Shown in pieces: positions 4,838 to 22,735 of a stretch of 41,213 nt of DNA. Position numbers and translations under genes: made by a program. Every line of letters begins with the position of its first letter. Position 1 is the first letter of the stretch. The notes beneath the pieces are model-generated. The model saw only the letters and a program-made list of their open reading frames with translations, was not told the DNA's origin and did no database searches. The stretch comes from an uncultured Bacteroidia bacterium (lineage in GTDB: Bacteria; Bacteroidota; Bacteroidia; Bacteroidales; Prolixibacteraceae): the NCBI GenBank assembly GCA_903904515.1, contig CAIVCR010000035.1, positions 1-41,213 of the forward strand, in the 5' to 3' direction.

Positions 4838-4846
4838 CTCCCTTTA

Positions 4847-4870
4847 ACTGAAGTGAACAATCACTTCAGT
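4847..4870 (-). terminator. Hairpin across the end of the sugar isomerase gene
   Basis: ACTGAAGTG and CACTTCAGT are perfect inverted arms around AACAAT and overlap the TGA stop of the minus-strand isomerase gene. Read on the minus strand, only a weak run (TTAAAG) follows. It may act as a leaky terminator or processing signal between the isomerase and GH95 genes. Confidence 0.45.
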
Positions 4871-6503: not shown

Positions 6504-6583
6504 AAAGGTAAGGTCTGATGTTAGTTTGATCGCTGTTAAACCATTCAAAGATATAAAAATGCAATTAATTATCGGGTATAAAT

Positions 6584-6645
6584 AGTCGCCGGGTGACTGT
6601 TCAGGACTTGCATAGTCACCCGGTGACTTCAAACCGGGTGACTTC
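6584..6645. repeat. Short palindromic CCGGGTGACT repeats
   Basis: Near-palindromes AGTCGCCGGGTGACT (6584-6598) and AGTCACCCGGTGACT (6614-6628) are followed by a half copy, CCGGGTGACTTC (6634-6645). They fill the spacer between the GH127 stop and the dioxygenase gene. They resemble small dispersed palindromic repeats and could fold as hairpins after the GH127 transcript unit boundary. Confidence 0.6.
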
Positions 6646-6657
6646 ATTAGCGAATAA

Positions 6658-8592: not shown

Positions 8593-8655
8593 TGTCTGTA
8601 TTTTAATTTTTCATATTTAACTCTAAACGCTTAATGAGGCTGTATCAAAAGTTAT

Positions 8656-8782
8656 TTAAGTTAACCACAATGGTCACAAAGTCCGCCAGTTGGCGGATCA
8701 CAAAGATCACAAGAATCAGAAATACAATATATTACATTTGTGTTCTTTGTTTTTACCTTGTGTGCTTTGTGTTTAAAATGAC
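8656..8782. repeat. Imperfect CACAAAG stem-loop with embedded 16-bp palindrome
   Basis: Motifs like CACAATGGTCACAAAG on the left and TTGTGTTCTTTG and CTTGTGTGCTTTGTG on the right form a long imperfect inverted repeat between the GH127 and GH51 genes. Inside the left arm sits a perfect palindrome, TCCGCCAGTTGGCGGA (8682-8697), which interrupts the periodic pattern. It looks like a small palindromic repeat inserted in a larger one. Confidence 0.6.
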
Positions 8783-8790
8783 TTTTTATA

Positions 8791-10821
8791 CTACCTGCTA
8801 TTATTTTTTAACCGGATAACAGTAATTGAGTTTGCCGCAAGTTCACACTGGAATTCTTTCCCAATCTTGATTTCTGATCTTAATGGAGTTAAACCCATAT
8901 CATCCGGTAAACCGGTCAAAACGGTTCTGGATCCAACGGAGTTTTTCAGATCAATACCTTTTATTTTAATTGTTGCATTCACAGAACCTGGAAGAACATT
9001 CACCACCTTAATGATCAGATCACCACTCTTCGTATCCTTTAAAATTGAGACTGGGAGCAGATCTGCCCCTTTCTTAGAGTCCCCGGAAACAGTAACCTGG
9101 CTGGCAAGATATTTATCTCCTGAATTTTCACCAAACAGTTTCTGAACAAAGTAGTTAACTGATGGCATAACCTTTGTGTTGTTGAAATAGATCAGATCGG
9201 GCGACCATTGCGTATGACCCGATTTAGCCAGCAGCGGAGCATATGATGCCATTCCAACCACGTCACCATTCCGTTCGAGGGAAGTCATATAGGCCGCTTC
9301 TGCCAGGGCTGAGCGCAGCGTATTTTTTCGGTCCACGTCATGGGCCGCATACTCTCCGACGTAAATATGAGATGCCTTACGATCGTAAGTGTCATACCGG
9401 TGAAGGTTCTCCAGAAACCATTTTGGCTCCTTATAATAATGCTCATCCACCATTTGAACCTTGTACTCGTTGGCAAATTTCCAGCCGAGATCAAAGTCTT
9501 CTCCAGTTGGGTCGGGACCAACAGTTCCGACGATGGTGATCCCGGGATGTTTTGCTTTGACAATTTCATAAATCATTTTGAATCGTTCCCGAAAATCAGG
9601 GGTCTGTTTATCCTCATTTCCAATCCCTATGAATTCAAGATTAAAGGATTCAGGATGACCTGCTTCAGCCCTTTTCTTCCCCCATTCCGAAGAGGCCGGT
9701 CCATTTGCATATTCTATCAGGTCGAGGATCTCCTGAATATAGGGTTGCATTTCATTCATTGGCAATCCCCGTTGACCAGTGCTGCCAATTACCCAGGTGC
9801 CACCTGAGTTCTGACAGCTTACCCCTGCAGGTACCACAGGAAGTGGTTTAGCTCCGATATCTTCACAAAACTGAAAATATTCAAAATAACCCAAGCCTGC
9901 CGATTGGTGATAATTCCAGATATCACGTTGCCCAACCCTTTGTTCAACGGGCCCAATCGTATTTTTCCAACGGTACATATTCCGAAGACCATCGCCATGA
10001 ACAAGGCACCCTCCCGGAAAACGCATAAACTTTGGCTTCAGATCGGCAATGGTCTGAGCCAGATCGGCGCGCAGTCCGTTGACCCTGTTTTTAAAGGTTT
10101 TTTGAGGGAATAACGAAACTTCATCGATTGCAAACTTCCCTTTTGTCTTTCCAAGAATCACAAAATGACAACTGTCGCAGCTCTGGGTTGCCGTAACTGT
10201 TGCCGGGTATTTTTTCCAATCTTTTGAATCAACAGTGAATTCGGCTTCTCCGAAAATTTCTCCTTTTGAATTTTGCAATTTGATTTCAAACGGGATTGGC
10301 TTTTCGGAAATCAGCTTTATAAAGGATGAGCAATCATATTTTTCACCAGCATGAATTACAATTCCATCAAAACCGGAATTGGATAAACCTACCCCTTTTT
10401 GACCCTCATCCTCAATATTCAATACGATATAATGTGGGTCATTACTATTTAAGGGTGATGATGTCTCGACTGATATAGTCCCATATCCGAATCCATCGGT
10501 TGTATATTCCCAGGCTGTAAGCGGATTCCACCCTTTGTGATCGTTGGGGGAGTATTCAAAGGAACGGTTTTGGATCAATTCGGCATAAAGTCCCCCATCG
10601 GCAGCGTAATTGAGGTCTTCAAAAAAGATACCGAACAGATGGTCGCTGATTTTTTTTGTTTTGGTGGCGTCGATTGAAATTGTTGCTGTCATGATAGTTT
10701 CATCACTTTTTGTCTGAGAACCTTCCTGTTTTAGGGGTCGGGTGCTACCTAAGGCATTTGCAAACATGGAGAAGAATGTCAACAATCCTATAATTGCAAT
10801 ACCTGATTGAACTCGTTTCAT
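8791..10821 (-). CDS. Alpha-L-arabinofuranosidase, GH51 (large form)
   Basis: Second large GH51 enzyme (676 residues), predicted to be exported. The N terminus is hydrophobic (about residues 5-25) and then contains a ~25-residue linker before the conserved HLFGIFFEDLNYAADGG block (61-77). A beta-sandwich insert (about 95-235) precedes the barrel with RFPGGC (267-272). Catalytic acid/base Glu403 is in IGIGNED and nucleophile Glu490 is in YVGEYAAH. It is a clear paralogue of the GH51 at 354-2327, with the same domain order but many differences. It reads away from the plus-strand GH51 at 11137, so the 315-bp spacer holds divergent promoters. The enzymatic class is secure; its preference relative to the paralogue is unknown. 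Confidence 0.93.
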   Translation of the reverse strand: MKRVQSGIAIIGLLTFFSMFANALGSTRPLKQEGSQTKSDETIMTATISIDATKTKKISDHLFGIFFEDLNYAADGGLYAELIQNRSFEYSPNDHKGWNPLTAWEYTTDGFGYGTISVETSSPLNSNDPHYIVLNIEDEGQKGVGLSNSGFDGIVIHAGEKYDCSSFIKLISEKPIPFEIKLQNSKGEIFGEAEFTVDSKDWKKYPATVTATQSCDSCHFVILGKTKGKFAIDEVSLFPQKTFKNRVNGLRADLAQTIADLKPKFMRFPGGCLVHGDGLRNMYRWKNTIGPVEQRVGQRDIWNYHQSAGLGYFEYFQFCEDIGAKPLPVVPAGVSCQNSGGTWVIGSTGQRGLPMNEMQPYIQEILDLIEYANGPASSEWGKKRAEAGHPESFNLEFIGIGNEDKQTPDFRERFKMIYEIVKAKHPGITIVGTVGPDPTGEDFDLGWKFANEYKVQMVDEHYYKEPKWFLENLHRYDTYDRKASHIYVGEYAAHDVDRKNTLRSALAEAAYMTSLERNGDVVGMASYAPLLAKSGHTQWSPDLIYFNNTKVMPSVNYFVQKLFGENSGDKYLASQVTVSGDSKKGADLLPVSILKDTKSGDLIIKVVNVLPGSVNATIKIKGIDLKNSVGSRTVLTGLPDDMGLTPLRSEIKIGKEFQCELAANSITVIRLKNNSR

Positions 10822-10921
10822 ATGTTTACTTAAATTGTTTACCTTGGCTAGCTACCGATCAGATCATATTTTGAAAGCCGATTATCAAAAGGGATCTGAT
10901 AGTTGAGTTTAATAATTAAGA

Positions 10922-10955
10922 CAAATATAAGTATCTGTGAAATATATTTTGCAAA
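10922..10955 (-). promoter_or_regulatory. Candidate Bacteroidota-type promoter for the minus-strand GH51
   Basis: On the minus strand TATATTTG (10929-10922) fits the -7 consensus TAnnTTTG perfectly, with a TTTG (10955-10952) as possible -33 element. The spacing is 22 bp, slightly long. Transcription would begin about 95 bases before the GH51 ATG at 10821. Apart from this and the opposing promoter, the 10822-11136 spacer shows only AT-rich sequence. Confidence 0.4.
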
Positions 10956-11086
10956 CTTTTATTTATAAATAGTATTTATTACTTTTGTTTTTCTGACAGC
11001 CATTTTTGATTTCGCCAGATTACTATTTTAGATATTTCTATATCCTCCTAAATACCAGATAAATTACTCTAAAATTGAAACTTAAG

Positions 11087-11118
11087 TTTTGTTTTATTTT
11101 TATATAAGTATAATTTAC
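11087..11118 (+). promoter_or_regulatory. Weak candidate promoter for the plus-strand GH51
   Basis: TTTTG (11087-11091) is followed after 19 bp by TAATTTAC (11111-11118), an imperfect match to TAnnTTTG. The spacing is right for the Bacteroidota vegetative sigma factor and it would start a very short leader before the ATG at 11137. Confidence 0.3.
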
Positions 11119-11136
11119 CTTTAAAATAAATAAATT

Positions 11137-12672
11137 ATGAAAAAAGTGAATCAAATTCAGTCTTTACTTATTGCTTTATTATTTTTTACAGCTATCACCG
11201 GGTTTTCCCAGAATTCAATCATTGTCCATGCCGATAAACCGGGTTCAAAGATTGACAAGGCTATTTATGGCCATTTTGCCGAACATCTTGGCCATTGTAT
11301 TTATGGCGGAATCTACGTCGGCGAGAAATCGGATATCCCTAACACCAAAGGTTTCCGTTTGGATGTGGTTGGTGCATTAAAAGATTTAAAAGTTCCTCTG
11401 GTCCGTTGGCCGGGTGGATGTTTTGCCGATACCTATCACTGGAAAGACGGGATAGGCCCAAAATCTGACCGCGCTTCAATCATTAACGTCCATTGGGGTG
11501 GAGTAACCGAGGACAACAGTTTTGGGACACACGAATTTCTGGACTTTTGCGAGCTCATTGGTTGCGATGCCTATATTTGCCTCAATGTGGGGAGTGGAAC
11601 AGTTCAGGAAGCTGCTCAGTGGATGGAATATGCGACCTCTTCGAGCGAAAGTCCCATGACTAAACTACGCAAACAAAACGGACGGGAGAAACCATGGAAC
11701 GTCAAATACTGGGCTGCAGGAAATGAGACCTGGGGTTGCGGTGGAAGTATGCGCCCCGAGTACTATTCTGACCTATTTAATCAATATTCATCCTATATGC
11801 GCGCCCCAGGTGTCTACAAAATTGCCTGTGGTGCAAATGCCGAGGATTATAAATGGATGGATGTATTAATGAAGCAATCGGCTCATATGATGAACGGTAT
11901 TTCACTCCACTATTATACCATAGCCGGAGATTGGAATAATAAGCATTCTGCCACACAGTTTGATGATAAGGATTGGTTTGTAACCTTGCAAAAGACTTTG
12001 AAAATGGAGGAACTGGTCACCAAACACTCCGAAATCATGGATAAATATGATCCTGAAAAAAAAGTAGGATTGTTGGTTGATGAGTGGGGAAACTGGTTCG
12101 ATGTTGAACCCGGGACAAATCCGGGATTTCTCTATCAGCAGAATACCTTGCGTGATGCTTTGGTTGCCGGTATCAACCTGAATATCTTTAATAACCATGC
12201 CGACAGGGTAAGGATGAGTAATATTGCACAAATGATCAATGTTTTGCAGTCGGTGATTCTAACCAAAGAGAAAGAGATGGTTTTGACACCAACCTATTAT
12301 GTCTTTAAGATGTATAATGTTCATCAGGATGCAACAGTTCTTCCGCTTGAAATTAAGAGTAATAAATATTCTTCAGGATCAGAAGCTGTAGATGCAATCA
12401 ATGCTTCGGCCTCTGTGAAGGATGGTGTGGTTAGCATTACCCTTTGTAATCTGGACCCGGTTAATTCCCAAAGTGTGAGTTTTACGCTTCAAGGGTTAAA
12501 ATCGACACAGGTTTCCGGAAAGATTGTCACGGCCAGTAAGATGAATGCTTACAATGATTTTGGCAAAAAAGAGGAGGTTTCGATGACCGATTTTAAGGGA
12601 GCGAAGCTGAATAAAGGGTTGGTTGAAGCGAATATTCCGGCAAAATCGGTGGTGCTTATTCAGTTAAAATAG
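11137..12672 (+). CDS. Alpha-L-arabinofuranosidase, GH51 (compact form)
   Basis: A 511-residue GH51 of the compact, AbfA-like subgroup without the large beta-sandwich insert. Unlike the usual intracellular members it carries a signal peptide (MKKVNQ...GFSQ, cleavage near residue 25), so it probably works in the periplasm on short arabino-oligosaccharides. Conserved blocks are IYGHFAEHLGHCIYGG (43-58), RWPGGCFADTYHW (90-102), the acid/base in AAGNETWG (Glu197) and the nucleophile in LVDEWGNW (Glu316). A C-terminal beta domain ends in VLIQLK. It is transcribed away from the other GH51 genes and towards the GH53 gene, separated from it by a GCAAAG repeat pair. Family and export are well supported; physiological substrate is inferred. 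Confidence 0.93.
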   Translation: MKKVNQIQSLLIALLFFTAITGFSQNSIIVHADKPGSKIDKAIYGHFAEHLGHCIYGGIYVGEKSDIPNTKGFRLDVVGALKDLKVPLVRWPGGCFADTYHWKDGIGPKSDRASIINVHWGGVTEDNSFGTHEFLDFCELIGCDAYICLNVGSGTVQEAAQWMEYATSSSESPMTKLRKQNGREKPWNVKYWAAGNETWGCGGSMRPEYYSDLFNQYSSYMRAPGVYKIACGANAEDYKWMDVLMKQSAHMMNGISLHYYTIAGDWNNKHSATQFDDKDWFVTLQKTLKMEELVTKHSEIMDKYDPEKKVGLLVDEWGNWFDVEPGTNPGFLYQQNTLRDALVAGINLNIFNNHADRVRMSNIAQMINVLQSVILTKEKEMVLTPTYYVFKMYNVHQDATVLPLEIKSNKYSSGSEAVDAINASASVKDGVVSITLCNLDPVNSQSVSFTLQGLKSTQVSGKIVTASKMNAYNDFGKKEEVSMTDFKGAKLNKGLVEANIPAKSVVLIQLK

Positions 12673-12685
12673 ACTAAAAAATTGA

Positions 12686-12852
12686 TCACGCAAAAACGCA
12701 GAGTCGCAAAGAATCGTAAAGGTTTAGGGGGTTGATTTTTCCCTTTGCGTTATATTCGCCTTCTTTGCGAGAACCAATATATCCGTTTTTCTCGCAAAGC
12801 ACGCGAAGAACCGCAAAGTGTTCATGTATTGATTCTATTTTCTTTGCGTGAT
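12686..12852. repeat. Two tandem GCAAAG/CTTTGCG stem-loops
   Basis: The left copy has CACGCAAAAACGC and TCGCAAAG facing CTTTGCG and CTTTGCGAGAA. The right copy has CTCGCAAAGCACGCGAAG facing CTTTGCGTGA. They sit between the GH51 and GH53 genes and belong to the same dispersed family as the repeats at 1-303. They may serve as transcription or mRNA-stability boundaries. Confidence 0.7.
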
Positions 12853-12922
12853 AGTTTTAATCAATGATTTCGATTTTAATACACACCTTTGTTTTAAACT
12901 TTTTCTATTTATTCACCTCCCA

Positions 12923-13990
12923 ATGAGAAAAATTAAAACGCTGATATCGCTTTGCATGCTGTTTTCGATCATATGTATCGGATGTTCAAAATCATCTGCG
13001 GTAACTTCACCTGTCCCGCTAGCCGCTGACAGCAGTTTTGTAAAAGGGGCTGACATTGGCTGGCTCCCGCAGATGGAAGCTACCGGATATAAGTTTTACA
13101 ACGATCAGGGTGTTGAACAGGATTGTTTTCAGATTCTGAAGGATCATGGGATCAATTCAATCCGGCTCAGAACATGGGTCAATCCTTCTGATGATAAGGC
13201 AAGTGGTCATTGCAGTAAAGCAGAGACTGTCGTCATGGCAGTACGTGCCCAGAAAATGGGGATGAAGGTGATGATCGACTTCCATTACAGTGATTCATGG
13301 GCCGACCCCGGACAGCAACGGAAACCGGCTGCATGGGTTGGGCATGACTTTCCAACACTATTAAACGATGTGTATAATTATACGGCCGATGTTATGATTG
13401 CTTTAAAGTCGGCTGGAATAACACCTCAGTGGGTACAGGTAGGGAATGAAATTTCCAATGGAATGATCTATCCGGAAGGAAGCGCTTCGAACTGGAGTCA
13501 GTTGATTCAATTGGCGAATAAGGGATATGATGCGGTTAAAGCTGTAAGTCCTTCAACCAAAGTTATTCTCCATATCGATCAGGGGAATAACATCAGTCGC
13601 AGCAAGTGGTGGTTCGACAATGCCCAGGCAAACGGCGCAAAATATGATATTATCGGTCTCTCTTATTATCCATACTGGCTGGACGGAAGGCCCGATTTTT
13701 CGTTATCGATCGATGATCTGGGCAATAACATGAGTGATCTGGCCTCCCGATATGGCAAAGAGGTGATGGTTGTTGAAGTGGGAGGGGAGGATACCCAACC
13801 GCAGAATACCTTTGATATGCTGGTAGCTGTTCAGAAAAAGGTCAAAGCTGTTCCGGGCAATAAGGGTCTTGGCGTTTTTTACTGGGAACCTGAAGGCGCC
13901 AGAAGCTGGAGCCACTATGCCTTGAGTGCCTGGGGAGATGACGGGAGACCAACGAAAGCACTCAAGGCATTCGTTCCAAACTTAGAGTGA
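12923..13990 (+). CDS. GH53 arabinogalactan endo-beta-1,4-galactanase lipoprotein
   Basis: Predicted to cleave beta-1,4-galactan chains of type I arabinogalactan (pectin side chains) internally. I start it at the ATG at 12923, which gives a lipoprotein signal (MRKIKTLISL...CIGC, Cys21). The in-frame ATG at 12848 would put 25 extra residues before that signal. Numbered from 12923, the mature protein starts with the typical KGADIGWLPQMEATG block, followed by RLRTWVNP and DFHYSDSWADPG. The acid/base is Glu176 in QVGNEISNG and the nucleophile is Glu285 in VVEVGGE. The length (355 residues) is normal for GH53. It is the only endo-acting enzyme in the block and points to arabinogalactan as target. 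The surface lipoprotein location is inferred from the signal. Confidence 0.93.
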   Translation: MRKIKTLISLCMLFSIICIGCSKSSAVTSPVPLAADSSFVKGADIGWLPQMEATGYKFYNDQGVEQDCFQILKDHGINSIRLRTWVNPSDDKASGHCSKAETVVMAVRAQKMGMKVMIDFHYSDSWADPGQQRKPAAWVGHDFPTLLNDVYNYTADVMIALKSAGITPQWVQVGNEISNGMIYPEGSASNWSQLIQLANKGYDAVKAVSPSTKVILHIDQGNNISRSKWWFDNAQANGAKYDIIGLSYYPYWLDGRPDFSLSIDDLGNNMSDLASRYGKEVMVVEVGGEDTQPQNTFDMLVAVQKKVKAVPGNKGLGVFYWEPEGARSWSHYALSAWGDDGRPTKALKAFVPNLE

Positions 13991-14116: not shown

Positions 14117-15382
14117 CTACAGAGGCTGGATTACAAGATTTTTCCAAAGTACTTTAATGCCACCTCCATCGTGGATCTGGAGAGCAATACGGCCGTTTCC
14201 TTTTCCGATCAGGGAGTCAGTCAGATGGGTCATCTCCTGACCGTTCAGCCAGGTTGTAACCTCCGACCCAACTGCTTTGACACGCATGGTATTCCATTCA
14301 CCCATCTTCAGGATATTCTCCTTCTCATCGGGAATCTGGTGCAACCATCCTCGCCCGTACGATTCATAGATGCCACCTGAATCACTCCCCTTTGGAGCAA
14401 TTTCGCACTGCCAACCTGAAACAGTCGTTCCTTCGCATGTTGACCGGAAGAAAATACCGCTGTTGCCGTTTGTAATCTGTTTAAAATCTGCGGTAAGGTC
14501 GAAATCTTTATAATATTTTTGAGTGGCCAGATAACCATATCCTTTGTCAGGGCCGCTTTCGCAGATCAACAGGCTATCCTGAACATACCATTTTTCTGTT
14601 CCATAAGCCACCCAATTCGATAAGTCAACACCGTTAAAAAGTTTCACTGCAGTTTTTGCCTTCTTTGGAAGTTCCCTGATCTTCATATTCCTGTACCATA
14701 CCTTGCTGCCATGATCCTGTAGCGCAATGTATCCGGTTTCCGACAGACCATATTCAGGCATTTTTGACCATTTTCCGCTATTTTTCAGACGAAACCAATC
14801 AGGAGTCCAGGCTTCAAATTCAACAATTTTAGCACCATTTAACCAATGTTCCACATGTCCGTTATTGACAATGATTTTGGAAGAATTCCAATCACCCACC
14901 TGGCTTAGCTTTTTAGTTTTGGCATCGGCAATATGCATCGCATAATCGGCTCCTGCCAGCTGCCAGTCTTCGAGTTTCATGGGGAAATTAACATCGTCAA
15001 GCACCTGGTATTCAGGTCCGGTTACATAAGGAGTTCTGAATTTCTTTCCTTCCATCACATGGTAAATAACGCCGCTGTTTCCCCCTTTTGATATTTTCCA
15101 TTCAAAATTCAGTTCGAAGTTATCATACTGTTTTTCAGTATTGATATATCCGGTAGAATCGCTGCCAGTACCACTCGCCGACAGACACCCATTTTCAACG
15201 GACCATTTCGAAATGCCTGGTTCATTGTAGTTCTTCCATCCGGCCAGACTTTGTCCGTCAAATAAAAGCTTCCATCCATCCTGTTTTTCCTGAACGGACA
15301 ATACATTCTGTTTCTCTGCACAGCTGCACAAAATGGCAGCGATCAGAAACATTCCACCAAATAATAAAGTTTGTTTTTTCAT
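14117..15382 (-). CDS. Double-domain DUF1080 (3-keto-disaccharide hydrolase-like) lipoprotein
   Basis: A 421-residue lipoprotein (signal MKKQTLLFGG...LCSC, Cys21) with two concanavalin-like beta-sandwich DUF1080 domains, about residues 32-230 and 240-420. Both repeat the same signatures. GWKLLFDGQSLAGWKNY and AVKLFNGVDLSNWVAYG open the domains; ELNFEWKISKGGNSGVIYHV and DLTADFKQITNGNSGIFFRS follow; GEWNTMRV and WLNG motifs come later. DUF1080 proteins have been shown in other Bacteroidota to hydrolyse 3-keto-glycosides. It is the last gene of the minus-strand run, 13 bp after the GH20-derived frame, alongside an exported Gfo/Idh oxidoreductase. An oxidise-then-hydrolyse function is therefore plausible. 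The duplicated architecture is seen directly; activity is inferred. Confidence 0.85.
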   Translation of the reverse strand: MKKQTLLFGGMFLIAAILCSCAEKQNVLSVQEKQDGWKLLFDGQSLAGWKNYNEPGISKWSVENGCLSASGTGSDSTGYINTEKQYDNFELNFEWKISKGGNSGVIYHVMEGKKFRTPYVTGPEYQVLDDVNFPMKLEDWQLAGADYAMHIADAKTKKLSQVGDWNSSKIIVNNGHVEHWLNGAKIVEFEAWTPDWFRLKNSGKWSKMPEYGLSETGYIALQDHGSKVWYRNMKIRELPKKAKTAVKLFNGVDLSNWVAYGTEKWYVQDSLLICESGPDKGYGYLATQKYYKDFDLTADFKQITNGNSGIFFRSTCEGTTVSGWQCEIAPKGSDSGGIYESYGRGWLHQIPDEKENILKMGEWNTMRVKAVGSEVTTWLNGQEMTHLTDSLIGKGNGRIALQIHDGGGIKVLWKNLVIQPL

Positions 15383-15395
15383 TTTTTAATCGTTC

Positions 15396-16052
15396 TTAAT
15401 GTTGAGTTTTTAAAAAGAGATCTTCGAATTTTAAGTTTGAATCATTAATATTATAGTGTTTATTGTAATCAACCAGCCTGTTGTACCAATTTCTCCAGAA
15501 AAGATATTCCGAATCGAACCGGCCGGTCATAGTTCCCATTCTGTAGCTCATGTTCTCCGACAGCCATGCCTGTTTGTACTCTTCCCTAAGTTCAGTGCAG
15601 AAATCCATCAGGTCAGCTGTAAGTCCGTGCGCAGAACTATTAATGTCATTGAACCGGCTGTCGTCTTTTTTGCCGGTAGTTTTATATTTATAAATCCAGT
15701 TCCAGCGGTCAACAATGGTTCTTGCCCAGATAAATCGTGTTGCTGTATAATTGAGCAATCGTGTATTGACGAGCATCGTTTTAATAAAGGTAGAATCTGC
15801 AGTTTGGGAACTTAGTGCCGCCATGAAATTTTCCTGGGCTGATTCTGAGCATAACCTCGCATTCTTATAATCGGTCAGGTGATCCAGCGTATTTTTCAGA
15901 TGGTATGGTGTAAACGGATCCGCCCACATCTCTGTCATGGTATGTCTGCCCAGACACTTTGCAAGATGCGCCTCAGATTCAGCCATTTTATTAAATCCGT
16001 TAATCATTTGAACCGAGATTCCAGGATACATTATCCGGCAATATTTACCCAT
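15396..16052 (-). CDS. C-terminal part of frameshifted GH20-like protein
   Basis: This 218-residue frame has no start-like features (no signal peptide, opens MGKYCRIMYPG). It is helical, with many Trp/Tyr/Arg residues, as expected for the C-terminal accessory domain of exported GH20-like proteins. Reading upstream of its first ATG in the same frame gives sensible sequence, AWQIEPLERGEY, with no break until it meets the end of the 16075-17457 frame. I therefore interpret it as the continuation of that gene, separated by a single-base insertion or two-base deletion near 16085-16100. If real, the fragment is probably not translated well; if it is a sequencing error, the two frames form one protein of about 680 residues. 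Confidence 0.65.
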   Translation of the reverse strand: MGKYCRIMYPGISVQMINGFNKMAESEAHLAKCLGRHTMTEMWADPFTPYHLKNTLDHLTDYKNARLCSESAQENFMAALSSQTADSTFIKTMLVNTRLLNYTATRFIWARTIVDRWNWIYKYKTTGKKDDSRFNDINSSAHGLTADLMDFCTELREEYKQAWLSENMSYRMGTMTGRFDSEYLFWRNWYNRLVDYNKHYNINDSNLKFEDLFLKTQH

Positions 16053-16074
16053 GTATTCACCCCTCTCTAACGGC

Positions 16075-17457
16075 TCAATCTGCCAGGCACCATGATCCGT
16101 AAGCCATAAAGAGCCATGCGTTTCGTTGCAATGCCTGAACAGGATCGGTCCACACAGAAGTTATGTATCCGATTGCTTTCTCCTCACGGGCTGCCTTAAG
16201 ACAAACATCGATATTGTCGAATGTGTAATTCGTTGCCACATAAACATTCCCCCAATTGTCAACAGCCGATTGAATCAGAAAAGGCAATCCTGTTTTTTGA
16301 ATTGGTTTGAGCCATTTTGAAACAGAACCCGGCTCATCGGAGTATTCCCAGATTACGGGTATTAAATCCTTTGGAAAACTTAATGCAATTTCAGGGTAGT
16401 TGTGCGTAATATCAGTCCAGGCCATCACTGTCTTTCCATATTCCCTGAGTGTATTGGTGACGAATATTAACTGTTTAATATAGCGTTCTTTTGGTTTTGT
16501 TTTTGGATTGGCGATTACCAGACGTTCAGTTTCCCAGGTTTCATCGAACCCGATATGGATAAACGGTGAGGGGAAAAGGCCCGCATATTGCTTAATCCAG
16601 TCTTTTAATAGTGTTTGTACCCCAGGGTTTTCAGGATCAAGGTCGTGACCATACTGTCCGATTCCTAGACCGGCATATTTCTCCACCCGGAGCAGCTCAT
16701 GCAGGTGACTGTAAAAATTTACGAAAGGGATAACATCAATATGCCTTTCGCGTCCGTAGGTGATTATCCTCTTTATTTGCTCCTGCGAATAACAGGCGTT
16801 GTAGTTCATTAACGGATACCCCTTCATCTCAATACTTATTTCGTTGTAGAAATAATACTGATTAACTTTCCATTTCGCCAGGAAATTGATCTGGTTTTTA
16901 ATCTCAGCCTCAGTCAATAACCCACCGTGCGAAAAGTCCATCATCACACCACGATAGGCAAAAGCAGGATAATCATCAATTTCAACTTCCGGAATGCAGG
17001 TGTTGCCACCTGTGACTGTAATCAATTGACTTAATGTCTGAAGCGCATAATACAGACCGGCATCTGCCGAAGCATTGAGCTGAATTTTAGTTGCAGTTAC
17101 CCTTAAGTGGTAAGCTTCGCGTGACTTTTGCCCCGGCTTTTCAGCAACGACAGGCAAGGGAGATCCGGGTTGGTCGGATTTCAATACAATAAGCCGGGCT
17201 TCAGGGTCCTCAGTATTTATAATTGGAAGGGACAATCCGGTTTGCTGTTTTACCAATGCAATAAACTGAGCAATTGATTTCTCTTCTCTTAAAGCCAGAT
17301 CCAGGGACACCAGTAATTTTGCCCCTGCAAGAATAAACCTGTCTTCTCCCCACGAAACCTTTTGAGGGACGGGAAGAAGACGATTTTTTTGAGCGTTCAG
17401 ACTAAGAGTGCACAAAAGCAAAAACAGAACGGTGTATAGAACTGTCGTTTTTATCAT
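16075..17457 (-). CDS. GH20-like beta-N-acetylhexosaminidase, catalytic part, frameshifted
   Basis: Encodes the N-terminal zincin-like GH20b domain (about residues 25-150) and the GH20 TIM barrel. The adjacent Asp-Glu catalytic pair is in HIGFDETWE (Asp305-Glu306 from the ATG at 17457). A signal peptide ends near SLNAQ. I prefer the ATG at 17457, two bases beyond the Gfo/Idh stop; an in-frame ATG at 17481 would overlap that gene by 22 bp. The frame ends at a TGA right after the last barrel helix (FMAYGSWCLAD), whereas the next frame continues with AWQIEPLERGEYMGKY, which shows a frameshift. GH20 enzymes usually release beta-linked GlcNAc/GalNAc, but this branch is divergent, so the substrate is uncertain. 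Confidence 0.78.
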   Translation of the reverse strand: MIKTTVLYTVLFLLLCTLSLNAQKNRLLPVPQKVSWGEDRFILAGAKLLVSLDLALREEKSIAQFIALVKQQTGLSLPIINTEDPEARLIVLKSDQPGSPLPVVAEKPGQKSREAYHLRVTATKIQLNASADAGLYYALQTLSQLITVTGGNTCIPEVEIDDYPAFAYRGVMMDFSHGGLLTEAEIKNQINFLAKWKVNQYYFYNEISIEMKGYPLMNYNACYSQEQIKRIITYGRERHIDVIPFVNFYSHLHELLRVEKYAGLGIGQYGHDLDPENPGVQTLLKDWIKQYAGLFPSPFIHIGFDETWETERLVIANPKTKPKERYIKQLIFVTNTLREYGKTVMAWTDITHNYPEIALSFPKDLIPVIWEYSDEPGSVSKWLKPIQKTGLPFLIQSAVDNWGNVYVATNYTFDNIDVCLKAAREEKAIGYITSVWTDPVQALQRNAWLFMAYGSWCLAD

Positions 17458-17459
17458 TT

Positions 17460-18440
17460 TCAAAAGGTTACCTCTACCCATTGTTCATTTATAGCCGATT
17501 TTTCCAATGCCTCAAGAATGGCTACCTCGTTCAGCATGCTTTGATGACTGCGTGGTTCCATGCGTGTTCTGAACATTTCAACGATATCGGAATAAATCTT
17601 GACCGGCTCACTTTCGGGAACACGTGATTTCAATTCAACCAACCCCTTTTTAGTCTCCACAAAGGTTTCCCATCCGTAAGCCAGGTTTTTAAAGATCAGG
17701 GTGGCATAAAGTCCGCTTTTAAACACCAATGCCGCACTCCCTTTCTTGCCTTCACGCGTGATTTTCACTTTCTGAATATCTTCACCAAACATAAACATCA
17801 ATGGTTGAAGGATATGCACACCGTAGAAAAATACTCCTCCATATTCCGAGTCCAGGTCGACAGGGCCGTAACGCACTACGTGGTTAATCTCACCCAGCGA
17901 TTCCAGTTGTTGTTTGGTGTCGTAGGTGCAAACGCTCTGTGCAATTGAACTGAACGATGTGATTGGAGTTCCGGCTTTACGTGCCATTTCCAGAAATGCT
18001 TTTCCCTCTTCAACGCGGTAGCAGAACGGTTTATCGATAAACGTCGGGATACCTGCCTTAACAAATGGGGTGGCAGCTTCAAGATGAAACCTGGCATGCC
18101 GGTGGTCAACGATAAGTGCATCAATTTTCCCGAGCATCTCCATGGGGTCTTTTACGATATTGGGAATCTTACCCGCTTCAGCTGTTTTTCGGGCAAATTC
18201 ATCGGTCTCCCCCCAGATATGGGTCACTTCGACTCCGGGGAATTTTTTATCGATGTTAAACATCTTTCCAAACCCGGTGGAATGGGAATTCTCTGCCCCG
18301 ATTATGCCAATGCGGATAGCCTTTGGTTCATTCGTCTGGTCTGCAATAAGCACAGAACCAAATGCCGGAGCATTCAACGAAACTGCTGTAACGGCGGCTC
18401 CGGTCCCGATGGTCTTGATAAATCCTCGTCTTGTATCCAC
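17460..18440 (-). CDS. Tat-exported Gfo/Idh/MocA family oxidoreductase
   Basis: NAD(P)-dependent sugar oxidoreductase family protein of 326 residues. It begins with a twin-arginine signal (DTRRGFIKTIGTGAAV), so it should be folded with its cofactor before export. The Rossmann domain shows IRIGIIGAENSHS (42-54), and the canonical Glu-Lys-Pro motif reads IDKPF (Asp136-Lys137-Pro138). The C-terminal alpha/beta domain follows. It is separated from the upstream propeller gene by one base and from the GH20 ATG by two bases, which is a tight operon. Exported family members are linked in other Bacteroidota to oxidation of glycosides to 3-keto forms using a bound cofactor. That role, with DUF1080 downstream, is inference. 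Confidence 0.87.
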   Translation of the reverse strand: MDTRRGFIKTIGTGAAVTAVSLNAPAFGSVLIADQTNEPKAIRIGIIGAENSHSTGFGKMFNIDKKFPGVEVTHIWGETDEFARKTAEAGKIPNIVKDPMEMLGKIDALIVDHRHARFHLEAATPFVKAGIPTFIDKPFCYRVEEGKAFLEMARKAGTPITSFSSIAQSVCTYDTKQQLESLGEINHVVRYGPVDLDSEYGGVFFYGVHILQPLMFMFGEDIQKVKITREGKKGSAALVFKSGLYATLIFKNLAYGWETFVETKKGLVELKSRVPESEPVKIYSDIVEMFRTRMEPRSHQSMLNEVAILEALEKSAINEQWVEVTF

Positions 18441-18441
18441 G

Positions 18442-19821
18442 TTAATATTGGATTATATATTTGATTTTTATAAAATCGGCCCGTGTCTTTCCATTTTCGG
18501 TGATGCGACCTAACGTGTAAACGGTGCCATCCAGACCAATGGCAATAGAATTCACATAGAGGGGACGCTGACCGTCAGGATAAAATACGGGTCCGTGATC
18601 CTGATATTTAGCAGCTGAAATATCATAGGTAATTAAATGTAAATTCTCTAACCCTTTTGCTTCACCCATGGAAGTTGAGCTTTTTCCGGTTACCCGTTTA
18701 CCATCCTGATAAATGGGTCCACCTGTCAGATAATAAAGCGTATGCCCGTCGGGTCCGAGCGTAAATCCAAGATAACCATAGCTGAACTGATCAAACATCC
18801 CGCTGCGCTGCGAGACTTTTGAGGTTATCCGTTCCAGTACTTCAATTCGCGGCAGTGCCGGATCAAAACTGAAAAGGTAACCTGAGTTTCCGTGAACCCC
18901 ATAAAATTTCTTTTCTGCCTGACTCCAGATCACCTGTCTCCAATTGTAGCCCATGCTTCCTGAGGATGAGGGGTCATAAATGCCGAAATAATCCTTTTTC
19001 ATATCCTCTCCTTCAACACGCCCGATGATATCCTCTCCTGCACGGCAACGAAGAATGGTCCCTTCAGGGGTGGTCATATACGCGGTGCCGTCTTCGGGAT
19101 TAATCGCAATCGAACGGCATATCACACGGAATGCCGATCCTTTGCCTCGCTCCCCTTCACCTGCGACAGGACCAAGATCTTTAAGTTCCTTTTTGATCAG
19201 GTCATAGCGGAAAAAATAACCTGTGGGCCAGGTTATCCCATAGATCACTCCTCTCTTCGTATCCATGCTCATGGTCAGAATGCCTTCCTGATGAGGCGCG
19301 ATTGCGAGGTTTTCAAATTTGTGGGTAGTTAGATCGTAGGAAAGCAAATGTCCTCCGGGATAAGGTTTATAACCAGCGGGTGGAATTCCGGGTTTTTCCA
19401 TACCGTCAACAGTGCTATAATAACCAATGTGCGTGGCAAAATAGAGCTTGCCGTTTGACTCCACGAATTTAACGTGGCTCTTTCCCTGCACAATAGCTTT
19501 CAGTCCCTTTTCGCCACATAGTTCGGTGAGATCACCCAAATGGCGAATCGTTTCACTTTTAGGATCAAACGAATAGATCTGTCCCCCCACATCCGCTGAT
19601 TGAGAGCAGAGTACGTAATAAATTTTCCCGTCAGATGCAGCCGAAATCCCATTGTAAGTATCATGTGCCAGTTCAAAACCGGAGTTATAGGGTTTGGCAA
19701 CTAAACTCGTTGATAAATCTTTTTTTGATTTTAAGTCCGGAACTTTTCCTGATCCCTGTTCACAACACGCAGATAAAAGGACGATTAACAAGGACGAAAT
19801 AATAAATCTTAAGATTATCAT
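18442..19821 (-). CDS. Beta-propeller-like lipoprotein of unknown function
   Basis: A 459-residue predicted lipoprotein (MIILRFIISS...LSACCEQ) from the ATG at 19821. A second in-frame ATG at 19842 (MNNELNK) lies in the first heptamer repeat units and would spoil the signal peptide. The mature part shows repeated blade-like strands such as GGQIYSFDPKSE, GHLLSYDLTTHKFENL and GYFFRYDLIKKELKDLG, with GTAYMTT and GTVYTLG repeats, as in Kelch/SMP-30-like propellers. I cannot assign a reaction. It sits one base before the Gfo/Idh gene and 95 bp after the ceramidase-like gene, a gap almost filled by heptamer repeats. It may bind a glycan or act as a lactonase-like partner; this is a guess from fold and context. 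Confidence 0.75.
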   Translation of the reverse strand: MIILRFIISSLLIVLLSACCEQGSGKVPDLKSKKDLSTSLVAKPYNSGFELAHDTYNGISAASDGKIYYVLCSQSADVGGQIYSFDPKSETIRHLGDLTELCGEKGLKAIVQGKSHVKFVESNGKLYFATHIGYYSTVDGMEKPGIPPAGYKPYPGGHLLSYDLTTHKFENLAIAPHQEGILTMSMDTKRGVIYGITWPTGYFFRYDLIKKELKDLGPVAGEGERGKGSAFRVICRSIAINPEDGTAYMTTPEGTILRCRAGEDIIGRVEGEDMKKDYFGIYDPSSSGSMGYNWRQVIWSQAEKKFYGVHGNSGYLFSFDPALPRIEVLERITSKVSQRSGMFDQFSYGYLGFTLGPDGHTLYYLTGGPIYQDGKRVTGKSSTSMGEAKGLENLHLITYDISAAKYQDHGPVFYPDGQRPLYVNSIAIGLDGTVYTLGRITENGKTRADFIKIKYIIQY

Positions 19822-19830
19822 TTTATTTAA

Positions 19831-19907
19831 TTCATTATTCATTATTCATTATTCATTATTAATTATTCATTATTCATTATTCATTATTCATTATTCATTA
19901 TTCATTA
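19831..19907. repeat. Eleven-copy heptamer tandem repeat (TTCATTA)
   Basis: Eleven head-to-tail 7-bp units, all TTCATTA except the fifth, which is TTAATTA (19859-19865). On the coding (minus) strand the unit reads TAATGAA, so each copy carries an ATG and a TAA, and each such ATG opens a four-codon frame (MNNE then stop). The array ends 9 bp before the propeller gene ATG. Slippage would change leader length and the frame of upstream starts, so expression may vary between cells. Confidence 0.95.
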
Positions 19908-19916
19908 TTGTCATTC

Positions 19917-21338
19917 TTAATAGCTTCTCAGCAATTTCCGGATGGCCGTCATGACAACAGCCTCTGCATCGGCTGTTACTCCTGAAGCAACACCTGACTC
20001 ATAGCCACCTTCTTTATAGGCAACAGCAGTGCAAATATAACCCGGGGCATAATCGCCATAGGCTGCCATAGCAATAAACAGGTCGGGCCTGATAGCCTTG
20101 GCTGCCAGCTGATATTCGACAAAGAGCTCTCCCGGAGCAAAAAGGATTCGTCCCCGTCCCAACCTGAGACACCTCACATCAAGCTGTTTGCCGGCCTGGG
20201 AGCGGCGTAAATAAACCAGTTTGGATAAGTTATTACTCAGAAATATCGAATCCTTTGTCGCCATCCATGTTTGCATCTCCGCCTGATTTGGAAGTGACGG
20301 CAAGGCTAATGGTTCAACTTTCCATGCGATTTCCTCTGCAGTTATTGGCTCACGCTTTGTTGCCTCCCAGGCCCGTTTCATCCCATCAGCCAGCCGGTCA
20401 GCGAGAATGCCGCGCATTTCAGGAGAACCGTCATTATACTTACCCGCAGTAATATTTCCCCCCGCTCCATTAAAATGAATATGAAGTGCGGAAGGCACAG
20501 CAAGCTGCCGCATAAAGCGGGCAACTCCCGGATAATCAGGATTTGCCACACCGGTACGGTAATAGCTCTGTGGATGGGTGGCATAATAACTTAGCACTGC
20601 AATGGGTTTATCGTTATTCCAGAAACTGACCAGGGAAACCATTGGGTCAATCAGACCTTCAGGTTCAGCAATCAAGGCGGAATCTTTACAGCTCGAATAG
20701 CGGGTTGCTTTCAGCAGACCATCATTGCCAATGATCCGCCGGTTAGAAGCAACTTTGTAAACATCAGCTTCACCGAGTCCGATATGTGTTACCGGTTGTG
20801 TGTGCTCAAGTGATTGTTTAACAGCTGCTTTGAGCCGGATGACCATCTCTCGGGCAAAAGTCCCCTCGAAACACATCGGATCGCGACCGGCATCCCTGAG
20901 CATCTTTTCAGCACCAAAATCACAGGTTGGCGCATCGTGTTGGTGGACAGTATGAAGTGCTACCCTCGAGGGAATAGTCCCTGCGGCATCGGCGAGTGCC
21001 TGACGGAAAATATCCTGACCTTCATTGGCAATTCCAATCCAGTCGACCGAACATAAAACGATTGGCTCACCGGAACCTAAAAGGATAGCCCCTTTAGCCC
21101 GGAGCCCCAGGTCCCATGTGTTAATCTCCTTGTTGTATGTCAACAGACTTCCTACTGGAGGGGTAGCATCGATATCGAAAGTTGCCAGGCGAACTCCTGT
21201 TGGAATCGTATCCATAGCCTGCCCAAATAGGTCTGAACCAATTGCGAAGAAACAGATGCAAATGAAGGAGAAAAAGCTTATGAATTTGCGGTTTATAGTG
21301 CTGGTTTTAAATATAATTAAATGATTGTTTCCTTCCAT
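19917..21338 (-). CDS. Neutral/alkaline ceramidase N-terminal-like exported protein
   Basis: A 473-residue protein with an unusually long N terminus before the hydrophobic signal segment (about residues 19-40, ending DLFGQ). The rest corresponds to the N-terminal catalytic domain of neutral/alkaline non-lysosomal ceramidases, with TFDIDATPPVG near the start. The zinc-binding histidine region is HTVHQHDAPTCDFG, and a glycine-rich NGAGGNITAGKYNDG block stands where true ceramidases have their serine motif. The C-terminal immunoglobulin-like domain of real ceramidases is missing, as in many family members of environmental Bacteroidota and Planctomycetes. Its substrate is unlikely to be ceramide. 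It sits 32 bp after the DegT-like gene and before the propeller gene, in a cluster of exported proteins. Confidence 0.82.
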   Translation of the reverse strand: MEGNNHLIIFKTSTINRKFISFFSFICICFFAIGSDLFGQAMDTIPTGVRLATFDIDATPPVGSLLTYNKEINTWDLGLRAKGAILLGSGEPIVLCSVDWIGIANEGQDIFRQALADAAGTIPSRVALHTVHQHDAPTCDFGAEKMLRDAGRDPMCFEGTFAREMVIRLKAAVKQSLEHTQPVTHIGLGEADVYKVASNRRIIGNDGLLKATRYSSCKDSALIAEPEGLIDPMVSLVSFWNNDKPIAVLSYYATHPQSYYRTGVANPDYPGVARFMRQLAVPSALHIHFNGAGGNITAGKYNDGSPEMRGILADRLADGMKRAWEATKREPITAEEIAWKVEPLALPSLPNQAEMQTWMATKDSIFLSNNLSKLVYLRRSQAGKQLDVRCLRLGRGRILFAPGELFVEYQLAAKAIRPDLFIAMAAYGDYAPGYICTAVAYKEGGYESGVASGVTADAEAVVMTAIRKLLRSY

Positions 21339-21370
21339 GATTTACCTAATAACTAATATTTAAATAAACT

Positions 21371-22735
21371 CTATAGTCTATTCAGTTGGTCTCTGTTTGC
21401 ATGAACCTTCATAATGGCGCTGATAATGTCATCCATATCACCCTGCGTTCCAAGCAGCGGTCCGGAAGCCCAGAGCATAACCATATCTTCACATACCTGG
21501 TCACATTTGGGATAGGTCAGCTCTTCCCGGTATTGCTGAAGTCTGGCAGGAGAATACATTTTCTGATATACCTTCAGATTCAAAATGTGATCTGTCCAGG
21601 GCTCTTTATGCAGTCCGTTGGGGATATATCCGCTCATGCTGATCCCTTCTGCTGCCAGAGCCTTCAGAAATTGATTCCGTGTTGCATTGTTGAAATGTTC
21701 CTTTTTATAGGACATCGTATAGAGATAGAAGGAGCCGCTTTGAGTCCCTTCGTAGAGTTTTTGGGGAACAAGGCCCGGGAAGTTTTTAAGTTTTGATGAA
21801 AGGTATGCTGCGTTTTTATTGCGAAGGAGGAAGCGTTCTTTGGCACTTTCCAGCTGGGCCAGCAGAATTGCACCTTCAAATTCGTTCATCCGGTATTTTG
21901 GTCCGATTGTTTCGGAACGCCCTTTGCGATTAGTGCCGTGATTCTGAACAGTATAGCATTTATCCATGAGCTCCTCATTATTTCCGATTATGGCCCCTCC
22001 TTCACCACAAGCGATTGTTTTGGTAGTCTGAAAACTAAAGCATCCTAAATCGCCAATGGTACCCAGTATTTTTCCCTGGTATTCGCCCAGATGTGCCTGG
22101 CACGCATCCTCGATAACCCGGAGGTTGTGTTTTTTAGCTATTGCCATGATCCGTTCCATGTTACAGGGTTGTCCCATGATGTGAATCGGCATAATGGCTT
22201 TGGTATTTTCGGTAATCCTCCGTTCAACCTCGTTCGGATCGAGCTGAAATGATTCGGGATCGAGGTCCGCCATCACCGGTAGTGCTCTGCTTGAAATAAT
22301 TGACGCGATGGTACCCATGTCGGTATAAGGCGAAGTGATTACCTCATCACCGGGACCGATCCCCAATGCTTCGACGCAGGTATGGAGCGCCTGCGTTCCG
22401 GAACCGGTAGCCACCGTAAATTTGGCACCCATCAATTTGGAATATTCACTCTCAAAGGTGGGCACTGTTCCGGTTGACGATTGTATTCTGCACCAGATCC
22501 CGCTTCTGGTGGTTTTAATAATTGCTTCAACCATTTTTTCATCCACGTAGGGCCATGCTGGCCATATTTTGCTCTTTACAACCGGTTCACCACCCAAAAG
22601 GGCAAGCTTGCCGCTTTCGTTCAGCGAATGGGATATATTCCCCAAAACCGGAATTGAGGTTGAGGCTGCTGCTGCAATTGAACCAACAGATACACCTGCG
22701 ATGAATTGACGTCTGGTGAAATTATTTTTTTTCAT
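21371..22735 (-). CDS. Tat-tagged DegT/DnrJ/EryC1/StrS aminotransferase-like protein
   Basis: PLP-dependent fold-type-I protein of 454 residues. The sugar aminotransferase signatures are present: GSGTQALHTCVEALGIGPGDEV (111-132), IEDACQAHLGEYQGK (208-222), and the probable PLP-binding Lys239 in FSFQTTKTIACGEGG. The unusual part is the N terminus, NNFTRRQFIAGVSVGSIAAAAS, a convincing twin-arginine signal, so the protein should be exported with PLP bound. DegT proteins normally make amino- or deoxysugar nucleotides in the cytoplasm. It heads a minus-strand run of exported genes. It could instead act on free amino sugars or have another PLP chemistry. Family assignment is firm; location is inferred from the signal. 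Confidence 0.88.
   Translation of the reverse strand: MKKNNFTRRQFIAGVSVGSIAAAASTSIPVLGNISHSLNESGKLALLGGEPVVKSKIWPAWPYVDEKMVEAIIKTTRSGIWCRIQSSTGTVPTFESEYSKLMGAKFTVATGSGTQALHTCVEALGIGPGDEVITSPYTDMGTIASIISSRALPVMADLDPESFQLDPNEVERRITENTKAIMPIHIMGQPCNMERIMAIAKKHNLRVIEDACQAHLGEYQGKILGTIGDLGCFSFQTTKTIACGEGGAIIGNNEELMDKCYTVQNHGTNRKGRSETIGPKYRMNEFEGAILLAQLESAKERFLLRNKNAAYLSSKLKNFPGLVPQKLYEGTQSGSFYLYTMSYKKEHFNNATRNQFLKALAAEGISMSGYIPNGLHKEPWTDHILNLKVYQKMYSPARLQQYREELTYPKCDQVCEDMVMLWASGPLLGTQGDMDDIISAIMKVHANRDQLNRL

What the first reader, a model, noticed from the sequence alone, without database searches (positions are those of the whole stretch)
14117..22735. Operon-like run of six exported proteins with an unassigned joint function
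DegT-like (Tat), ceramidase-like, propeller lipoprotein, Gfo/Idh (Tat), GH20-like and DUF1080 lipoprotein are tightly spaced (1-95 bp) and each has an export signal. The mix of a PLP enzyme, an NAD-type oxidoreductase, a hexosaminidase and a 3-keto-glycoside hydrolase-like protein points to periplasmic or surface processing of an amino-sugar-containing glycoconjugate. I know of no described pathway with this composition, which makes this my best candidate for a new system.
Basis: partly seen in the sequence, partly recalled or inferred. Interest (0 to 1): 0.75.

Follow-up and report, generated by a model that had tools for sequence, protein, structure and literature searches.

The report
Exported aminotransferase–amidase sugar-processing gene module
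A run of bacterial genes for exported enzymes, built around an aminotransferase and a ceramidase-like amidase, recurs in several bacterial phyla and probably helps break down unusual amino sugars outside the cytoplasm, by a route for which I found no description.

Summary
The run is real. In 80 loci fetched by DegT alone, from four phyla, CerL lies in 53, Gfo2-type oxidoreductases in 31 and Prop in 20 (hits of at least 100 bits). In 13 genomes 24 of 38 DegT genes have CerL within 5 kb (0.5 expected). A Prop-first search found module genes beside 4 of 5 new Prop genes. PLP lysine and aspartate are kept in 94 of 94 DegT rows; CerL has the neutral-ceramidase fold and aligned zinc ligands. GH20 and DUF1080 are local partners, not core. 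Best reading: exported N-deacylation and PLP-dependent deamination of an acylated amino sugar to a keto sugar, handled by Gfo/Idh and, in some Bacteroidota, feeding GlcNAc catabolism. Substrate, direction and activity are untested. Against: three congeners have lost DegT at this same site, and 12 of 38 DegT genes lack CerL within 10 kb.

The parts
21371..22735 (-). DegT: Tat-exported DegT/DnrJ/EryC1/StrS (PLP) aminotransferase, 454 aa, type A; core
   Evidence: PF01041 300 bits; RR, Asp210, Gln213, Lys239 conserved; 85% identical to the L031/L053 copy
19917..21338 (-). CerL: exported protein with the neutral-ceramidase catalytic fold, 473 aa, putative Zn amidase; core
   Evidence: AF2 pLDDT 90.9; Foldseek 2zws 3.2e-22; Zn-ligand positions aligned
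18442..19842 (-). Prop: beta-propeller lipoprotein, 466 aa, no Pfam family; core in part of the loci
   Evidence: no Pfam match over its cut-off; AF2 pLDDT 81.3; generic propellers only among the PDB matches listed
17460..18440 (-). GfoT: Tat-exported Gfo/Idh/MocA oxidoreductase, 326 aa, GTG start in the listing
   Evidence: PF01408 46 bits; 88.6% identical to the L150 copy
16075..17481 (-). GH20 gene, 5' part (468 aa ORF), interrupted by a frameshift; local partner
   Evidence: PF00728 63 bits, PF02838 62 bits
15396..16052 (-). GH20 gene, 3' part (218 aa ORF, other frame)
   Evidence: aligns with the intact L150 GH20 from residue 457 on
14117..15382 (-). KDH: lipoprotein with two DUF1080 / 3-keto-disaccharide hydrolase stretches, 421 aa; local partner
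   Evidence: PF06439 284 bits, 2 stretches; 91% identical to the L150 copy
19830..19909 (.). 7-base tandem repeat (ATTCATT, 11.4 copies) between CerL and Prop, overlapping the start of the Prop ORF as listed

Best explanation
The run is a local version of a conserved, exported amino-sugar catabolic module. Hydrolases such as GH20 (and GH123 in Parabacteroides) release or expose a 2-acetamido sugar. CerL, an amidase by fold, removes an N-acyl group. The exported PLP enzyme DegT takes off the freed amine, giving a keto sugar. The exported Gfo/Idh enzymes, probably with bound NAD, interconvert ketone and alcohol; DUF1080, where present, cuts the 3-keto-glycoside bond. The resulting hexosamine enters the cell through a NagP-like transporter and goes through NagA/NagB. 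The simplest specific version puts the amine on C3 of a 2,3-diamino sugar, so that CerL, DegT and Gfo/Idh run in reverse the biosynthetic order oxidise, transaminate, acylate. Shown: gene association, export signals, conserved catalytic residues, the folds of CerL and Prop (predicted), GlcNAc-pathway neighbours in some relatives. Inferred: substrate, position of the amine, direction, amino acceptor, cofactor recycling, role of Prop.
For: Loci fetched with DegT alone: CerL in 53 of 80, Gfo2 31, Prop 20, GfoT 12 at >=100 bits (55, 34, 21, 12 with weak hits). CerL in 29 of 35 Bacteroidota, 21 of 33 Planctomycetota, 2 of 2 Acidobacteriota loci; where within 2.5 kb, on DegT's strand in 24 of 27 Bacteroidota, on the opposite strand in 16 of 17 Planctomycetota. 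In 13 genomes (holding 14 of the 80 loci, my choice): DegT with CerL within 5 kb 24 of 38, 0.54 expected; Prop with DegT 10 of 14, 0.09 expected. Prop-first: 4 of 5 new Prop genes have module neighbours. DegT: twin-arginine pattern in 88 of 93; Asp210, Gln213, Lys239 in 94 of 94 rows; solved relatives near the top are 2-deoxy-scyllo-inosose aminotransferases, whose substrate carries no nucleotide (recalled). CerL: only neutral ceramidases match in PDB by sequence, and only they convincingly by fold. Context: NagA, NagB- and NagP-like genes; Gfo2 of L055 best hits BT_2158 glycoside 3-dehydrogenase, below its cut-off. The one NagA match of Parabacteroides sp. Marseille-P3160 lies about 5 kb from a DegT; NagA within 10 kb of DegT 3 of 22, 0.24 expected, P 0.0016.
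Against: 12 of 38 DegT genes have no CerL within 10 kb. Only 1 of 10 Verrucomicrobiota loci has CerL. At the window's own site three congeners lack an intact DegT (L151 keeps two end fragments, L152 and L153 none) while CerL remains, with GfoT and DUF1080 in two: DegT is not indispensable to the rest, or the locus is decaying. CerL genes also occur with no DegT in the fetched stretch (L152-L154, L159-L161, L163, L164; some contigs short). NagA/B/P are in 8 of 35 Bacteroidota loci and 0 of the other 45, and not in the window's run. No amino acceptor or NADH source outside the cytoplasm is known to me. No activity has been shown.
Confidence: 0.4

Rival explanations
1. A variant of the known periplasmic 3-keto-glycoside route (Gfo/Idh oxidation, DUF1080 cleavage), with DegT and CerL as add-ons for one amino-sugar decoration.
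For: DUF1080 and GfoT stand in the same run in the window and in three congeneric contigs (L150 with GH20 between them, L151, L152), and there they outlast DegT. Gfo2 of L055 is nearest to BT_2158 glycoside 3-dehydrogenase. BT2157 is a DUF1080 3-ketotrehalose hydrolase (PMC9007349, passages seen) and BT2158 a periplasmic glycoside 3-dehydrogenase (PMC11300592, passages seen).
Against: DUF1080 is in 6 of 80 DegT loci, none at 300 bits or more, and not in the congeneric locus L051; CerL is in 53. Gfo2 of L055 is far below the BT_2158 cut-off (150.6 against 750 bits).
Confidence: 0.22
2. Degradation of glycosphingolipids or other N-acyl lipids: GH20/GH123 strip sugars, CerL is a true ceramidase, and DegT deaminates the freed long-chain base.
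For: CerL matches neutral ceramidases in PDB. A GH123 gene stands in the Parabacteroides cluster.
Against: CerL is about 470 aa against 646 and 688 for 2zws and 4wgk and misses the Pfam ceramidase cut-off. DegT is of the sugar aminotransferase family, and Gfo/Idh, NagP-like and NagA/B-like genes are sugar genes.
Confidence: 0.1
3. A surface-glycan modification system working in the building direction: Gfo/Idh oxidises a hydroxyl of an exported glycan and DegT aminates it.
For: Gfo/Idh-type and DegT-type enzymes make amino sugars in biosynthesis; gnnA/gnnB do oxidation then transamination at C3 of UDP-GlcNAc (PMC5644692, passages seen; that they are Gfo/Idh and DegT proteins is recalled).
Against: Bacteroidota neighbours are uptake and degradation genes (SusC/D, GH20, GH123, NagP-, NagA- and NagB-like). 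No glycosyltransferase was among the neighbours that I put to Pfam. An amidase does not fit synthesis.
Confidence: 0.1
4. DegT is not a transaminase here but uses PLP for an elimination that breaks a bond in the amino sugar.
For: ColD and CDP-4-keto-6-deoxyglucose 3-dehydrase are among the solved relatives. An exported PLP lyase would need no amino acceptor.
Against: The aminotransferase lysine is kept in 94 of 94 rows; that ColD-type dehydratases have lost it is recalled, not tested.
Confidence: 0.1

Closest known systems
Periplasmic 3-keto-glycoside pathway of Bacteroides thetaiotaomicron (BT2157, BT2158)
   Same: Exported Gfo/Idh-type oxidoreductase and a DUF1080 protein acting on sugars outside the cytoplasm
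   Different: No DegT or ceramidase-like protein is named in the passages that I read; here DegT+CerL is the constant pair and DUF1080 is optional
gnnA/gnnB diamino-sugar biosynthesis
   Same: An oxidation and a transamination at C3 of a hexosamine
   Different: That pathway is nucleotide-linked and synthetic (cytoplasmic: recalled); this one is exported, has an amidase, and in Bacteroidota sits among degradation genes
2-deoxy-scyllo-inosose aminotransferases (2c7t, 5w71, 5w70)
   Same: Second (5w71), third (2c7t) and eighth (5w70) in the list of solved relatives of DegT, aligned over most of its length
   Different: Antibiotic biosynthesis enzymes of the cytoplasm (recalled); substrate of the exported clade unknown
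Neutral ceramidase (2zws, 4wgk)
   Same: Catalytic fold and aligned Zn-ligand positions
   Different: CerL is shorter, below the Pfam cut-off, and stands in sugar gene clusters

Membership tests
DegT/DnrJ/EryC1/StrS aminotransferase (PF01041) | Pfam gathering score | tested here: met
   300.3 bits against 19.8
DegT/DnrJ/EryC1/StrS aminotransferase (PF01041) | PLP lysine and aspartate | tested here: met
   Lys239 and Asp210 in 94 of 94 rows; their roles are recalled from the family
DegT/DnrJ/EryC1/StrS aminotransferase (PF01041) | aminotransferase activity | not testable with these tools
   needs an assay
Neutral ceramidase (PF04734) | Pfam gathering score | tested here: not met
   12.9 bits against 32.1
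Neutral ceramidase (PF04734) | catalytic fold | tested here: met
   predicted model, 2zws 3.2e-22, TM 0.64 on the query
Neutral ceramidase (PF04734) | Zn ligands | tested here: met
   CerL His, His, Glu, Tyr align with 2zws positions 97, 204, 411, 448 (counted in the alignment); that these bind Zn is recalled
Neutral ceramidase (PF04734) | ceramide as substrate | not testable with these tools
   needs an assay
3-keto-disaccharide hydrolase (PF06439) | Pfam gathering score | tested here: met
   284.4 bits against 26.8, two stretches
GH20 | Pfam gathering score of the catalytic domain | tested here: met
   62.7 bits against 22.3
GH20 | intact reading frame | tested here: not met
   broken in the window; an intact relative exists in L150
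BT2158-type periplasmic glycoside 3-dehydrogenase | NCBIfam cut-off (BT_2158_fam) | tested here: not met
   Gfo2 of L055 150.6 bits against 750; the window's GfoT does not hit the family at E 0.01
Polysaccharide utilization locus | SusC/SusD pair beside the genes | tested here: inconclusive
   none in the run; a SusC/SusD-like pair at 32710-37697 is about 10 kb away beyond housekeeping genes. In relatives SusC is in 13 and SusD in 16 of 35 Bacteroidota loci

The most novel reading that the evidence does not exclude
PLP chemistry is carried out outside the cytoplasm as a step of glycan breakdown: an exported amidase and an exported aminotransferase together turn acylated amino sugars into keto sugars, a reverse of diamino-sugar biosynthesis, in at least three and probably four phyla.
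Probability: 0.36. Interest if true: 0.85.

Novelty: new variant of a known kind. Interest (0 to 1): 0.6.

Why it matters
An exported aminotransferase with an intact PLP site, tied to an amidase across phyla, would add a new chemistry to glycan degradation outside the cytoplasm and could explain how bacteria use 2,3-diamino and related sugars of bacterial envelopes. It would also give a role to two protein families (CerL, Prop) that have none here. Named strains carry the module (Parabacteroides sp. Marseille-P3160, Maribellus luteus XSD2, Mariniphaga sediminis SY21, Parapedobacter tibetensis), so it should be testable.

Tried and rejected
All six genes as one fixed system: rejected. DUF1080 and GH20 profiles hit 6 and 7 of 80 loci, 3 and 3 at 100 bits or more.

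An early impression (blastp with the window's own proteins), that DegT relatives outside the close clade lack CerL, was wrong: with profiles CerL-like hits stand near DegT also in L039, L045, L046, L048 and L049. The association is broader than type A, and this cannot serve as a negative control.

Prop function: no sequence match in PDB and only generic propellers in the listed fold matches; no enzyme class is claimed.

A phylum sample was of little use: type-A DegT at the strict threshold was in 1 of 395 genomes, the window's own, and Prop in 6 of 395. CerL was in 16 of 101 relatives, among them 7 of the 17 same-genus genomes other than the window's own.

The sigma-70 promoter and terminator scans were near chance (22 against 18.2; 12 against 9.9) and say nothing on co-transcription; Bacteroidota promoters differ (recalled).

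Limits of the counts. The DegT, CerL, Prop, GfoT, Gfo2, NagA/B/P, SusC/D, DppA, GCE and GH20 profiles were built from sequences of these same loci (GH20 from four: the window's 5' part, L053, L059, L138), so members match by construction and distant relatives can be missed. The estimates use distances between first coordinates, treat sites as independent and genomes as unrelated (there are two close Maribellus genomes), and rest on 13 genomes that I chose; their P values are too small. Of 15 Prop rows two are pieces of one gene, so 14 were used; DegT rows under 580 bits and NagA rows under 150 bits were dropped. One search was also run at 25 kb (NagA 4 of 22, P 0.0024; NagP 4 of 16, P 0.0033).

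Paper searches gave nothing fitting. A 2024 Nature paper on 3-keto glycan breakdown (Nasseri and co-workers, recalled) was not among the listed results and was not read.

Full report
OBSERVATION. The window holds a same-strand run at 14117-22735. In order of transcription: DegT (PF01041), CerL, Prop, GfoT (PF01408), GH20 in two ORFs, and a two-domain DUF1080 protein. Gaps are 32, 74, 1, -22, 22 and 13 bases. Each product has an export signal by eye. GH20 is frameshifted: the intact congeneric relative L150 (687 aa) aligns in two frames that meet at 16093/16091. Against the relatives compared, every gene, both GH20 halves included, differs most at third codon positions, so the genes have been under selection as proteins and the break is recent or an assembly error.

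SAME GENUS. Three contigs keep the window's order with losses. L150 has DUF1080, GH20 (intact), GfoT, Prop, DegT fragments (39% identical to the window's DegT, between Prop and CerL, where other relatives have the second type) and CerL. L151 has DUF1080, GfoT, a shortened or broken Prop, CerL and two end fragments of DegT. L152 has DUF1080, GfoT and CerL. L151 and L152 lie at the window's own site: the flanking GH53 lipoprotein is 79% and 83% identical, the 156-aa ORF 86% and 88%, the dihydroorotate-dehydrogenase-like ORF 87% and 82%; in L153 the last two stand directly before CerL with no DegT between. So DegT has been lost or cut at three orthologous sites. Other congeners differ: L031 (G005) has GfoT, an enolase-like gene, Prop, the second DegT, an esterase-like gene, CerL, DegT, GH20 and part of a Gfo2 gene; L032/L051 (G017) has DegT, CerL, Prop, Gfo2, GfoT, then NagP-like, NagA and NagB-like genes, and no DUF1080 hit in L051. 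Of the 17 other same-genus genomes searched, 7 have CerL and 3 a DegT at least 70% identical.

WIDER CONSERVATION. A scan with eight close DegT sequences gave 421 relatives; the best 80 were kept: 35 Bacteroidota, 33 Planctomycetota, 10 Verrucomicrobiota and 2 Acidobacteriota by record title. With profiles over all frames CerL is in 55 of 80 (53 at 100 bits or more), Gfo2 in 34 (31), Prop in 21 (20), GfoT in 12 (12). Further: SusD 16 (14), SusC 13 (13), GCE-like esterase 11 (10), GH20 7 (3), NagA 6 (6), DUF1080 6 (3), NagB 5 (5), NagP 4 (4), DppA 4 (4). Only 40 of 80 loci have 5 kb on both sides, so absences are uncertain. At 100 bits or more CerL lies in 29 of 35 Bacteroidota, 21 of 33 Planctomycetota, 1 of 10 Verrucomicrobiota and 2 of 2 Acidobacteriota loci. 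Where CerL is within 2.5 kb it is on DegT's strand in 24 of 27 Bacteroidota but on the opposite strand in 16 of 17 Planctomycetota: the link survives rearrangement. In Verrucomicrobiota Prop is the commoner partner (4 of 10).

CHANCE. In 13 genomes holding 14 of these loci (my choice), copies were located with CerL, Prop and DegT profiles. DegT (38 genes of at least 580 bits) has CerL within 5 kb in 24 cases (0.54 expected); Prop (14 genes) has CerL in 10 (0.17 expected) and DegT in 10 (0.09 expected). Against: 12 of 38 DegT genes have no CerL within 10 kb, and two Prop genes (G506, G507) have neither within 6 kb, though the G506 one lies near a contig end. A search begun from Prop in 395 Bacteroidota genomes found it in 6, five of them new. 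L138 and L139 carry CerL, DegT, GfoT and Gfo2 beside it; L140 two CerL and Gfo2 (and a third, weaker CerL-like hit); L137, at a contig start, Gfo2, NagP-, NagA- and NagB-like genes; L141 none of the core genes.

PROTEINS. DegT: the twin-arginine pattern is in 88 of 93 sequences of at least 550 bits; Asp210, Gln213, Gln236 and Lys239 are in 94 of 94 aligned rows, the window's included. A quick tree of 94 rows shows two types, 83 and 11 rows, divided by a branch with 100% support, each holding Bacteroidota and Planctomycetota, and mostly sorted by phylum. The best solved relatives are 7b0d and the 2-deoxy-scyllo-inosose aminotransferases 5w71 and 2c7t. CerL: predicted at pLDDT 90.9; the first four PDB fold matches are chains of neutral ceramidases (3.2e-22 to 2.4e-20), the fifth is at 5.8e-4 with probability 0.18. 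The profile alignment puts conserved His, His, Glu and Tyr of CerL on 2zws positions 97, 204, 411 and 448, the Zn ligands as I recall them. Prop: a beta-propeller at pLDDT 81.3 with only generic matches among those listed, and many invariant residues over 18 sequences.

CONTEXT. In L051 the neighbours are a NagP-like transporter (321 bits, cut-off 625), NagA over its cut-off (295 against 226) and a NagB-like protein (135, cut-off 237); the NagA-like protein of L115 is under the cut-off (204). Any of NagA, NagB or NagP is in 8 of 35 Bacteroidota loci and in none of the other 45. NagA lies within 10 kb of DegT in 3 of 22 cases (0.24 expected) and NagP-like genes in 3 of 16 (0.27 expected). Parabacteroides sp. 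Marseille-P3160 has a stretch of about 30 kb with three DegT, three CerL, two Prop, two GH20, one GH123 and SusC/D; its one NagA match and its one NagP match at the thresholds used lie on either side of it.

READING. The parts suggest removal of an acyl group (CerL), removal of the amine (DegT), and redox at the resulting ketone (Gfo/Idh), with hydrolases before and, in some Bacteroidota, GlcNAc uptake after. Because NagA acts on a still-acetylated sugar, the amine handled outside the cell is more likely a second one, for instance on C3; gnnA/gnnB make such sugars by oxidation and transamination (PMC5644692, passages seen). This step is inference. DUF1080 cleavage of a 3-keto-glycoside is reported for BT2157 (PMC9007349, passages seen) and periplasmic glycoside 3-dehydrogenation for BT2158 (PMC11300592, passages seen).

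VERDICT. A real and conserved exported module, not described as far as my searches reach, with a plausible but unproven amino-sugar role. GH20 and DUF1080 are local additions, and in the window's own genus the locus is losing genes, DegT among them.

Noticed in passing
window 19830-19909: A 7-base tandem repeat, about 11.4 copies at 97% match, lies between CerL and Prop and overlaps the start of the Prop ORF as listed; a unit not divisible by three could shift the frame of an upstream start.
   Followed up: no
window 354-13990: Three alpha-L-arabinofuranosidase (GH51-type) genes, GH95, GH127 and GH53 suggest arabinan/galactan side-chain degradation; a PhyH dioxygenase and a xylose-isomerase-like protein sit among them.
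   Followed up: no
window 32710-37697 and 38241-41020: A SusD-like/TonB-receptor pair and, on the other strand, a further Gfo/Idh gene next to a cytochrome c gene, about 10 kb or more from the run beyond housekeeping genes.
   Followed up: no
L104 14549-15448, L115 14343-15176, L052 2490-3365 and 12791-13663, L087 10876-11736: M55 D-aminopeptidase (DppA-like) genes stand in 4 of 80 DegT loci, in L104 and L115 just after Prop.
   Followed up: partly
L063 15615-18335 (same region as L035 3521-6241): CerL and Prop are read as one 906-aa ORF, a possible natural fusion of the two proteins.
   Followed up: no
G025 contigs C4 157501-161053 and C12 147518-151703 (Mariniphaga sediminis): Two copies of a CerL-Prop-DegT stretch, CerL and Prop with the same scores, one cut by a contig end: a recent duplication or an assembly repeat.
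   Followed up: no
L045 (the window's own genome, contig C59), L046, L047, L048: A second arrangement in the genus: a Tat-type DegT, a Gfo/Idh and a DegT without Tat signal, with a distant CerL-like protein in 3 of the 4.
   Followed up: partly
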